64,000 nucleotides of DNA, taken from positions 310,001-374,000 of the forward strand of contig NZ_CP036246.2 of the NCBI RefSeq assembly GCF_004299785.2, given 5' to 3'. The stretch comes from Arcobacter porcinus (GTDB lineage Bacteria > Campylobacterota > Campylobacteria > Campylobacterales > Arcobacteraceae). This document shows positions 55,723-57,594 of this stretch, piece by piece (within the stretch, counting starts at the first letter, position 1; each line of letters opens with the position of its first letter). A program made the position numbers and the translations under genes. The notes under the pieces were generated by a model that was not told the DNA's origin, ran no database searches, and saw nothing but the letters and a program-made list of their open reading frames with translations.

Positions 55723-55789
55723 AGAACTTCCCTCGTATAATAAATTTATGAATATATAACCTAGCTTTTAGCTAAAAAATATATTCTTT
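55723..55789. other. pepQ upstream region, left flank of the IS element
   Basis: This 67-nt stretch lies between the pepQ start and the IS. It holds the pepQ ribosome-binding site (GAGGGAAG on the minus strand) and a small stem-loop of TAGCT (55762-55772 region) with AGCTA near 55770-55774. The pepQ promoter should be here or was disrupted by the insertion; I see only a loose TATTAT on the minus strand close to the start. Confidence 0.5.
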
Positions 55790-55844
55790 TAAGATTGAAG
55801 TACTAACTTCAAATCTTTTACTTTTTACAGTCTATGACTTTAGA
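55790..55844 (+). repeat. Left terminal inverted repeat of the IS110 element
   Basis: It pairs with 57279-57333. The outer part is itself a near-perfect hairpin (AAGATTGAAGT at 55791-55801, loop ACTA, then ACTTCAAATCTT with one bulge). T-rich sequence follows. Confidence 0.75.
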
Positions 55845-55924
55845 TATAACAACATTTTTTTCCTTGTAGCAATGATGGAATTGAATTTATATTTATTCTA
55901 GCAAACTACATTATATAAGCCTGT

Positions 55925-56040
55925 TGATATCTTTAGTTGTTAATCATTTATTAAAAGCTGTGGAGGTAGCTGTATAGCACTTACTACATATAGATTAACG
56001 AGGCTGTGAATCTAGCTTAGGCTAGGCAACTAAAGATTAT
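55925..56040 (+). ncRNA. Candidate bridge RNA in the IS110 left end
   Basis: A nested structure can be drawn directly from the sequence. An 11-bp closing helix pairs 55929-55939 with 56027-56037. Inside it, a 6-bp helix pairs TTAATC (55940-55945) with GATTAA (55993-55998) and encloses a 47-nt loop that could carry guide segments. A third hairpin (CTAGC at 56012-56016, loop TTAG, GCTAG at 56021-56025) precedes the closing strand. A TATATA (55912-55917) lies where a -10 would place the transcript start just before the first helix. IS110-family elements are known to encode such RNAs in this position. Transcription and guide pairing are inferred. Confidence 0.5.
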
Positions 56041-56060
56041 TATAAACGAGGTATAAAAAA

Positions 56061-57290
56061 ATGTATTATGTTGGAATTGATATTGCTAAAAGCTTTCATG
56101 TTGTTACTATCATTGATGAGAATGAAGTAAAAGTTACACAAAAACCTATAAGAGTTACAAACTGTATTGATGGATTTTCAAAGTTTATTACTAAACTTGA
56201 AACTATTTCATCAAATACAAATGATTTTATAATTGGTCTTGAAGCAACTGGTATTTATGGTGAAAACCTTTGGGAGTTTTTAAATTCTCATGGGTTTAAT
56301 GTTAAACTATTAAATCCATTTCAAACAACTAGATATAGAGAACAACACACAATGAAGAAAGTAAAAAACGACAACATAGATTCTTGGATCATAGCTTTAT
56401 TTTTAAAAGATGGTAAATATAGTTCAGGTTATGTAACTGATGACGAATATCAGAGTTTAAGAACTTTATATCGTAATCGTGCTTCTATACAATCAGACAT
56501 GAAAGAAGTAAAGAAGAGAATACTTACTCAAGTAACAGTTACATTTCCAGAACTTGAAAATTTTATTGATATATTTAGCATCACAGGGCTTGCACTTTTA
56601 GATAAATATCCAACTGCACACCACTATAAACATAGTAGTGTTGACAGGATACTTAAAATTTTTAGACATATTCAAGGAAATAGTTTTAATAACCAAAAGG
56701 CTATAGAGGTTTTAGAGTTAGCAAAAAACTCTATTTATTCAGGTAAAGCCAAAGATGCAAGAGCTATTGCTATTAAAAGTTCTATTAGACTTCTTAAAAT
56801 ATATCAAGAAGAACTATCTATATTAGAAGAAGAGATATTAGCACTTCTTGAAAAAAATGGTATTAAAGAGGAAAAAGATGTTCCAACTAATTCATTGATT
56901 GAGAACTTAAAAACTATTCCTGGAGTTTCATCTAAAACTATTGCTGCAGTTATTAGTGAATGTGGAGATCTATCAAGATTTAAAACACCTATTAAATTTA
57001 TTGGTTATCTTGGATTATTTCCAACAGAAAATAGCTCAGGTAATTCCAAATCTACAGGTCATTTAAGCAAAAGAGGTTCTTCTTTAGCTAAACATGCTTT
57101 ATATATGGCAAGTGTTAGTTGTTTATTACACAACAAAGAACTAAAACAATATTATGATACAAAAAAGTCTCAAGGTAAATCCAAACAGGAGGGAATTATT
57201 GCTGTTGCTAGAAAACTTGCAACCATAATTTACTCTATATTTAGATACAACACTCCATATGATCCATCTCGTGTATTTTCTAAGTCATAA
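56061..57290 (+). CDS. IS110-family transposase (DEDD recombinase)
   Basis: A 409-residue recombinase. The N-terminal RuvC-like domain has Asp7 (GIDIAK), Glu61 (GLEATG), and Asp104 and Asp107 (NDNIDSW), the DEDD set. The C-terminal domain has IPGVSSKTIAAVISECGDLS, FIGYLGLFPTENSSG (with Ser about 325-326 as the likely nucleophile) and HLSKRGSSLAKHALYMAS, typical of IS110 enzymes. The coding frame is intact, so it is probably functional. An AACGAGG lies upstream of the ATG at 56044-56050. Confidence 0.93.
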   Translation: MYYVGIDIAKSFHVVTIIDENEVKVTQKPIRVTNCIDGFSKFITKLETISSNTNDFIIGLEATGIYGENLWEFLNSHGFNVKLLNPFQTTRYREQHTMKKVKNDNIDSWIIALFLKDGKYSSGYVTDDEYQSLRTLYRNRASIQSDMKEVKKRILTQVTVTFPELENFIDIFSITGLALLDKYPTAHHYKHSSVDRILKIFRHIQGNSFNNQKAIEVLELAKNSIYSGKAKDARAIAIKSSIRLLKIYQEELSILEEEILALLEKNGIKEEKDVPTNSLIENLKTIPGVSSKTIAAVISECGDLSRFKTPIKFIGYLGLFPTENSSGNSKSTGHLSKRGSSLAKHALYMASVSCLLHNKELKQYYDTKKSQGKSKQEGIIAVARKLATIIYSIFRYNTPYDPSRVFSKS

Positions 57291-57333
57291 ACAGTAAATT
57301 GTAAAAAGATCACAAGTTAGTACTTAAATCTAA
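57279..57333 (+). repeat. Right terminal inverted repeat of the IS110 element
   Basis: It pairs with the left repeat 55790-55844 and contains the last 12 nt of the transposase gene. Its outer part (AGAT, AAGT, TAGT loop, ACTT, ATCT) folds into a broken hairpin that mirrors the left end. Confidence 0.75.
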
Positions 57334-57439
57334 AAGATAGCATTAAAAAAAGCTATCACTTTACTAAATTGTTTAACCAAACATTACTGTTTGATTATCA
57401 AAATACTATTTGCAAAATTCTAGATAATTGCATTAAAAA

Positions 57440-57450
57440 TAGTACTTCAA
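57440..57450 (-). repeat. Extra inverted copy of the IS end motif
   Basis: TAGTACTTCAA matches the reverse complement of 55795-55805, inside the left IS end, over 11 bp. It may mark an alternative right end, an old IS end, or the target-site sequence; chance is also possible in AT-rich DNA. Confidence 0.4.
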
Positions 57451-57594
57451 AAATCAAACATCAGCAAGAAATATTTACTTGCAAATGTTCTTTAAAAATA
57501 TATTGTTAATAAAATATTGCCTTTTTTAATTTTCTCTTCATTTTAAGTTATTCTTTATAAAAAGGCTTTATAGTAGCTTTAACAAAAATTTAAA

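What the first reader, a model, noticed from the sequence alone, without database searches (positions are those of the whole stretch)
55845..56060. Structured left end of an IS110 element: candidate bridge RNA
Between the inverted left end and the transposase ATG lies about 216 nt without coding capacity. It contains an 11-bp long-range helix (55929-55939 with 56027-56037) that encloses a 6-bp helix with a 47-nt loop and a separate 5-bp tetraloop hairpin. A -10-like TATATA lies just upstream of the first helix. IS110-family recombinases are known to use a non-coding bridge RNA with two guide loops encoded in a non-coding end, so this layout is what one would expect. I could not identify guide segments that pair with the IS ends or target.
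Basis: partly seen in the sequence, partly recalled or inferred. Interest (0 to 1): 0.75.

Follow-up and report, generated by a model that had tools for sequence, protein, structure and literature searches.

The report
Transposon guide RNA targeting ribosome-binding sites
A small jumping gene in an Arcobacter-type bacterium carries a guide (bridge) RNA that most likely steers it into the ribosome-binding sites in front of other genes by copying the ribosome's own recognition sequence, and its left tip then rebuilds the site it has split; the RNA type is known, but the guides, the target and the rebuilding could be read directly from the sequence.

Summary
The left end of this IS110-family element encodes a bridge RNA; every decisive sequence-level test supports this. 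First-reader corrections: the element is 55732-57567 (14 copies; exact empty site with one CT core in a sister genome), so the left end is at 55732, not 55845, and guide segments do exist. Scans of 19 relatives recover a left donor guide (55953-57) and right donor guide (55998-56002) that co-vary with the element tips at 96% and 100%. A matrix of 13 own insertion sites picks the left target guide AUUUUUUUCCUU (55854-65) from 1120 positions (15.4 bits; next 6.2). Four helices co-vary (93.6% of cells paired, 14 of 18 pairs with double changes, score 0/500 shuffles). The 11-bp helix is real and closes the donor loop; the 6-bp helix is at best an alternative. The target guide resembles the 16S anti-Shine-Dalgarno tail: 35 of 38 insertions lie 8-10 nt from a start codon, and the left tip (CTCG) restores the Shine-Dalgarno sequence (-5.5 kcal/mol before, -5.8 after, -1.9 for random junctions). 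IS900 is a known precedent for such targets. Transcript, binding and transposition are untested. A structured right end and subterminal inverted repeats remain unexplained.

The parts
55732..57567 (+). whole IS110-family element, including a CT core at each end
   Evidence: 14 copies in the genome; empty site ...ACTTCC-CT-TTATAG... in sister genome G026
55732..55733 (.). left copy of the CT core dinucleotide
   Evidence: empty-site comparison; core is TT in the G005 subfamily and the guide changes with it
55734..55741 (+). left tip CGTATAAT: right donor sequence, -10-like TATAAT, and (antisense) ..CGAG that rebuilds the host gene's Shine-Dalgarno sequence
   Evidence: conserved in all relatives with a complete left end, apart from single covarying bases; SD energy before and after insertion
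55790..55850 (.). subterminal segment (hairpins) that is an imperfect inverted copy of 57260-57340; probably a 5' domain of the RNA or a protein site; function unknown
55850..55854 (+). target-loop closing stem, 5' strand (pairs with 55922-55926)
   Evidence: covarying helix 1
55854..55865 (+). left target guide AUUUUUUUCCUU, anti-Shine-Dalgarno-like (core CU at 55863-55864)
   Evidence: best match to the matrix of own insertion sites: 15.4 bits, next 6.2; guide CTC/TTC variant tracks target CTC
55866..55909 (+). target-loop upper stem-loop (55866-69 / 55906-09 outermost)
   Evidence: covarying helix 2
55912..55919 (+). right target guide UAUAUAAG (core AG at 55918-55919), followed by putative handshake CC 55920-55921
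   Evidence: best match in the loop to the reverse complement of right target flanks, 5.2 bits vs -1.1
55929..55939 (+). 5' strand of the 11-bp helix that closes the donor loop
   Evidence: analogous 6-9 bp helix with compensatory changes in other families; family permutation inconclusive (84/720)
55944..55947 (+). inner donor-loop stem UCAU (pairs with 56006-56009 GUGA)
   Evidence: 79 of 80 cells paired, two positions with double-sided changes
55951..55959 (+). left donor guide UUAAAAGCU (matches right tip ATAAAAAGGCT, one G skipped)
   Evidence: top covarying diagonal, 96% match, 4 extra covarying states in 18 elements
55960..55988 (+). donor-loop upper stem-loop
   Evidence: covarying helix 4, all 6 counted pairs with double-sided changes
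55998..56002 (+). right donor guide ACGAG (complement of left tip CTCGT); G56003 is a putative handshake base
   Evidence: top covarying diagonal, 100% match, 3 extra covarying states in 16 elements
56012..56025 (+). small CUAGC/GCUAG tetraloop hairpin, present only in the window's subfamily (stem varies)
   Evidence: alignments
56027..56037 (+). 3' strand of the 11-bp helix
56061..57290 (+). IS110-family DEDD recombinase (409 aa), residues D7, E61, D104/D107, S326
   Evidence: Pfam PF01548 and PF02371; NCBIfam NF033542, 220.8 bits against cut-off 140; IS621 8wt6 alignment; positions of D and E, S326 counted from the alignment
57388..57457 (-). conserved palindromic stem in the right end, better supported as RNA on the minus strand; function unknown
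57554..57567 (+). right tip TTTATAAAAAGG plus core CT: left donor sequence

Best explanation
The left end (about 55748/55845 to 56040) encodes a bridge RNA of the IS110 kind. Its first loop carries a left target guide (AUUUUUUUCC-UU) that pairs with the bottom strand of a Shine-Dalgarno sequence, and a short A/U-rich right target guide (UAUAUA-AG). Its second loop carries guides for the element's own ends (AAAAG..CU for the right tip, ACG-AG for the left tip). With the recombinase, the RNA aligns the CT core of the excised circle with the CT of a gene's Shine-Dalgarno sequence (AAAGGAA read on the gene's strand). The element therefore lands 8-10 nt before the start codon, in one orientation. 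Because the left tip begins CTCG, the host gene keeps a Shine-Dalgarno sequence (CGAG-GA...), so insertion need not stop its translation. Shown by sequence: ends, empty site, core, guides, covariation, site preference, predicted SD restoration. Inferred: that the RNA is made, binds the recombinase and directs transposition, and that the host gene stays translated.
For: Exact ends and empty site. Donor guides recovered as the best diagonals in the orientation expected from IS621. Target guide is the top match to own sites among 1120 positions in both ends and strands; only 5 of 127,978 window positions score as high. Guide CTC vs TTC tracks targets (9/10 vs 3/22, Fisher 7e-5). Structure covariation 0/500 shuffles for the score and collapse on sliding; RNAalifold found helices 1, 2 and 4 unprompted. 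35 of 38 evaluable sites have ATG 8-10 nt from the core, against 19-23% in a wider 3-12 nt window for background CT motifs. 16S tail CACCTCCTTTC. SD preserved. Recombinase family and catalytic residues.
Against: No transcript data, and no Rfam match. The scan found no sigma-70 promoter in the left end; only the conserved TATAAT at the tip is seen. The right target guide is short and matches weakly. Handshake pairing at the second position holds in only 3 of 6 families. Permuting target guides among elements gives a modest result (118/5000) because all guides are similar. Some targets match the guide poorly (e.g. ATGTATTCA-CT) yet still sit before a start codon, so selection may contribute to the site pattern.
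Confidence: 0.92

Rival explanations
1. The left end is only a structured 5' untranslated leader that controls recombinase translation, as described for the ISPpu9 tnp mRNA.
For: It lies directly upstream of the recombinase ATG, and the ISPpu9 leader folds and hides its ribosome-binding site (PMC8450116).
Against: A leader need not co-vary base by base with the element tips or match the insertion sites. It may be a second role of the same RNA.
Confidence: 0.04
2. The guide RNA is in the right end, as in IS1111-type elements, and the left-end structure has another role.
For: The right end is long (277 nt), conserved and structured.
Against: The target matrix finds its best match in the left end (15.4 bits) and only 6.2 bits in the right end. 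Both donor guides lie in the left end (the covariation scan itself covered only the left-end alignment).
Confidence: 0.02
3. The Shine-Dalgarno site pattern is due to selection: insertions elsewhere are lost, and the guide only reflects a weak T-rich preference.
For: Some sites match the guide poorly but still sit before a start codon; TCCT motifs are common and only 9% lie before an ORF start in the window.
Against: Guide variants track target variants, the core shifts with the guide in the G005 subfamily, and the 8-10 nt spacing recurs in many independent insertions.
Confidence: 0.15
4. The helices and guide matches are chance in A+T-rich DNA shared by descent.
Against: Helices and guides vary between subfamilies and the partner changes each time.
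Confidence: 0.01

Closest known systems
IS621 bridge RNA (IS110 group; PMC11208160, PMC11208158)
   Same: RNA in the left end; target loop then donor loop; left guide on the 5' side in top-strand sense, right guide on the 3' side complementary to the top strand; CT core; DEDD plus serine recombinase; a handshake-like base next to each core guide
   Different: Targets Shine-Dalgarno sequences, not REP elements; longer left end (329 nt) with a long 5' domain; long structured right end; subterminal inverted repeats; recombinase 409 aa, longer than IS621's (PDB chain of 328 residues)
IS900 of Mycobacterium avium subsp. paratuberculosis (IS110 family; PMC8141618)
   Same: Target motif CATGNNNNNNTCTCCTT, i.e. 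a start codon and Shine-Dalgarno sequence read on the opposite strand; Doran 1997 is titled as targeting translation initiation signals
   Different: I found no published link between that target and a bridge-RNA guide (limited library); IS900 sequence was not compared here; its hed gene idea has no counterpart tested here
seekRNA of IS1111/IS110 elements (PMC11187229)
   Same: RNA from the long non-coding region with short matches to both target strands; 26 of over 350 ISfinder elements have two longer non-coding regions
   Different: IS1111 RNAs come from the right end and those elements have short terminal sTIRs; neither holds here
ISPpu9 (PMC8450116)
   Same: IS110-family element with RNA features at both ends and a structured leader
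   Different: Targets REPs; its two small RNAs are a left antisense and a right sense RNA; here the right-end stem looks better as minus-strand RNA

Membership tests
IS110-family element with a bridge RNA | DEDD RuvC-like recombinase with conserved C-terminal serine | tested here: met
   PF01548, PF02371, NF033542 220.8 bits, cut-off 140; D7, E61, D104/D107, S326 by alignment with IS621
IS110-family element with a bridge RNA | scarless insertion at a short core shared by target and donor | tested here: met
   empty site with one CT; filled site with CT at both ends
IS110-family element with a bridge RNA | two-loop RNA (target loop, donor loop) in the longer left end | tested here: met
   covarying helices 1-4; left end 329 nt, right end 277 nt
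IS110-family element with a bridge RNA | donor guides matching the element ends | tested here: met
   96% and 100% with covariation
IS110-family element with a bridge RNA | target guides matching the insertion site | tested here: met
   left guide strong; right guide weak
IS110-family element with a bridge RNA | handshake guide bases | tested here: inconclusive
   first positions consistent but invariant; second position matches in 3 of 6 families
IS110-family element with a bridge RNA | promoter formed across the RE-LE junction of the circle | tested here: inconclusive
   TATAAT conserved at the left tip in all relatives with a complete left end; no clear -35; scan negative in integrated form
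IS110-family element with a bridge RNA | expressed RNA bound by the recombinase | not testable with these tools
   needs RNA-seq and pull-down
IS1111 group | terminal sTIRs of 7-17 bp and RNA in the right end | tested here: not met
   inverted repeats lie ~60-120 nt from the left end and next to the CDS on the right; guides are in the left end
IS900-type target (start codon plus Shine-Dalgarno) | CAT-spacer-TCCT insertion site in one orientation | tested here: met
   35 of 38 evaluable sites; target property only, sequence kinship to IS900 not tested
TIGR-Tas | Tas protein with TIGR array | tested here: not met
   protein model only: NF052498 33.5 bits, cut-off 100; array not searched for

The most novel reading that the evidence does not exclude
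A broad clade of IS110 elements (Campylobacterota, with hints in Treponema, Aerophobetes, Izemoplasmatales and mycobacterial IS900) has settled on the Shine-Dalgarno sequence as a universal safe harbour. Its bridge RNAs copy the 16S anti-Shine-Dalgarno sequence, its tips rebuild the site after insertion, and in this subgroup the right end encodes a second, minus-strand structured RNA related to the bridge RNA's 5' domain.
Probability: 0.3. Interest if true: 0.75.

Novelty: new member of a known kind. Interest (0 to 1): 0.6.

Why it matters
IS110 recombinases are being developed as RNA-programmable DNA-insertion tools. This one comes with all four guides, a core variant and a multi-copy set of natural insertions that test them. 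It suggests an RNA reason for an old observation, that some IS110 elements insert at translation-initiation signals: the guide resembles the ribosome's own anti-Shine-Dalgarno sequence, giving sites before most genes in any host. The repaired Shine-Dalgarno sequence suggests how 14 copies can be tolerated in a 2-Mb genome.

Tried and rejected
Rfam at gathering and at E<=5: nothing credible. A left end at 55845: rejected by copy comparison. My earlier idea that the right target guide was AUUAAAAG near 55950: rejected, that segment is the left donor guide. The 6-bp helix 55940-45/55993-98 as the donor-loop stem: replaced by 55944-47/56006-09. Family permutation for the 11-bp closing helix: inconclusive (84/720). 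A duplex between the left-end RNA and the recombinase mRNA 3' end through the inverted repeats: wobble direction opposes it (14 vs 38). Hairpin terminators at the ends: none found by the scan.

Full report
WHAT IS THERE. The window holds one of 14 copies of an IS110-family element in a 2.02-Mb genome; a same-genus relative is titled Aliarcobacter sp.. Comparing copies puts the ends at 55732 (CTCGTATAAT...) and 57567 (...TTTATAAAAAGGCT); the right end of one copy, L009, was not fetched. A sister genome, G026, has the same neighbourhood without the element...CATAGAACTTCC-CT-TTATAGTAGC..., and no relative of the recombinase was found there. The CT core is therefore present once before insertion and at both ends afterwards. 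The 409-aa protein is an IS110 recombinase (PF01548, PF02371, NF033542), and its catalytic D/E/D/D and serine align with IS621.

STRUCTURE. Energy alone does not separate 55845-56060 from shuffles, although 55745-56060 is separated. Relatives decide the matter. A blind MAFFT alignment of 20 left ends (A1), from elements with recombinase identity to the window's down to about 46%, gave an RNAalifold consensus that includes three helices, with 12 of its 14 pairs having double-sided changes. Adding the inner donor-loop stem (79 of 80 cells paired) gives 18 pairs. Of the cells, 93.6% are paired; 14 pairs have changes on both sides; the covariation score is 0.676 against 0.274 in shuffles (0/500), and it falls to 0.09-0.18 when the partners are slid. 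The layout is: target-loop stem 55850-54/55922-26; target guides around the stem-loop 55866-55909; donor-loop outer helix 55929-39/56027-37; inner stem 55944-47/56006-09; donor guides around the stem-loop 55960-88. The 11-bp helix is almost invariant within the window's subfamily. Other subfamilies have an analogous 6-9 bp helix with compensatory changes (GTTTAAC/GTTAAAC, GTTTAAT/ATTAAAC, GTTTAGT/ACTAAAC), but a permutation test across families was inconclusive.

GUIDES. I scanned every left-end column against every donor column, in both senses, across 19 elements. The best diagonals were AAAAG (55953-57), in the same sense as the right tip (96% match, four extra covarying states: the variants are AAAAG, AAACG, GGAAG, GGATG), and ACGAG (55998-56002), complementary to the left tip (100% match, three extra states: CTCGT, CTCCT, CTCAT, TTCGT). 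These are the senses and sides reported for IS621 (PMC11208160). The core changes from CT to TT in the G005 subfamily and the right donor guide follows. A matrix built from 13 of the element's own insertion sites scored 15.4 bits at 55854-55865 (ATTTTTTTCCTT); the next best of 1120 positions in both ends and both strands scored 6.2, and only 5 of 127,978 window positions score as high. The right target guide UAUAUAAG (55912-19) is the best match in the loop but is short. Elements whose guide reads CTCC have CTC|CT targets in 9 of 10 cases, against 3 of 22 for TTCC guides (Fisher 7e-5). The base after each core guide could act as an IS621-type handshake guide (PMC11208158), but it does not vary and so cannot be tested by covariation.

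TARGET. The left target guide resembles the end of 16S rRNA (CACCTCCTTTC in this genome), that is, the anti-Shine-Dalgarno sequence; several relatives carry CUCCUU exactly. Of 40 sites examined, two had flanks too short to judge; 35 of the remaining 38 have an ATG on the opposite strand 8-10 nt from the core, and 34 pass the ORF check (at least 40 codons, or open to the end of the flank). Background CT-type motifs show 19-23% within a wider 3-12 nt window, 4-12% with an ORF. One further site has GTG at 8 nt. The exceptions are own copy L020 and G005d. The duplex energy of the host gene's leader with the anti-Shine-Dalgarno tail averages -5.5 kcal/mol before insertion, -5.8 after, and -1.9 with random junctions (12 sites), because the left tip supplies ..CGAG.

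MECHANISM. The bridge RNA pairs one loop with the joined element ends in the circle and the other with a Shine-Dalgarno sequence, and the recombinase exchanges strands at CT. Ends, core, guides and site preference are shown by sequence; transcription, binding and catalysis are inferred from the family. The RNA start is uncertain: the conserved TATAAT at the left tip suggests about 55748, which would give an RNA near 300 nt with a long 5' domain, but a start nearer 55845 cannot be excluded. The scan found no sigma-70 promoter in the left end. Selection may sharpen the site pattern, since some sites match the guide poorly.

COMPARISON. IS900 has the target motif CATGNNNNNNTCTCCTT (PMC8141618), and a paper cited there (Doran 1997, seen only as a reference) is titled as targeting translation initiation signals. 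Shine-Dalgarno targeting is therefore not new; what appears new is reading it as an anti-Shine-Dalgarno guide in a bridge RNA, and the repair of the site. My literature search was limited: papers with bridge RNA and Shine-Dalgarno together were unrelated, and the main text of Durrant et al. mentions neither IS900 nor ribosomes.

OPEN POINTS. The right end carries a conserved palindrome in every subfamily, with wobble pairs favouring the minus strand (20 against 2 in shared pairs). Left-end 55790-55850 and the CDS end plus right end 57260-57340 are inverted copies within each subfamily although sequences differ between them (the margin over shuffles is clear in four of seven elements and small in the other three, the window's own among them). 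Their function is unknown. More distant relatives also appear to sit before start codons, which would make Shine-Dalgarno targeting wider than this subgroup.

Noticed in passing
57388-57457 (minus strand), and right ends of all relatives: Conserved palindromic stem GTTTGAT..AAACACT../..AGTGCTTCAAAAATCAAAC in the right end; wobble pairs favour an RNA on the minus strand (20 vs 2 in shared pairs). Possible second structured RNA.
   Followed up: partly
55790-55850 vs 57260-57340: Subterminal inverted copies (67 of 91 columns identical in the window, score only slightly above shuffles there) that co-evolve within each subfamily; unlike IS1111 sTIRs they are far from the tips.
   Followed up: partly
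L068, L069, L071, and the second IS110 family of G083 (L038, L043, L046, L049, L052): Distant IS110 relatives (about 30-35% protein identity) also appear to lie about 5-11 nt from an ATG on the other strand; some carry AAGGAG in the left end, as if the Shine-Dalgarno match were on the other side of the target.
   Followed up: partly
L059 (G016) 1006-2234 and its left end: Relative with a ~25-nt insertion next to the left donor guide and a TAG inside the recombinase frame; probably a dead copy.
   Followed up: no
G000:C1 1260931-1264642: Two copies of the element lie about 2.5 kb apart in the same orientation.
   Followed up: no
L057: Relative whose left tip has been replaced by other sequence while the guide loops and right end remain.
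   Followed up: no
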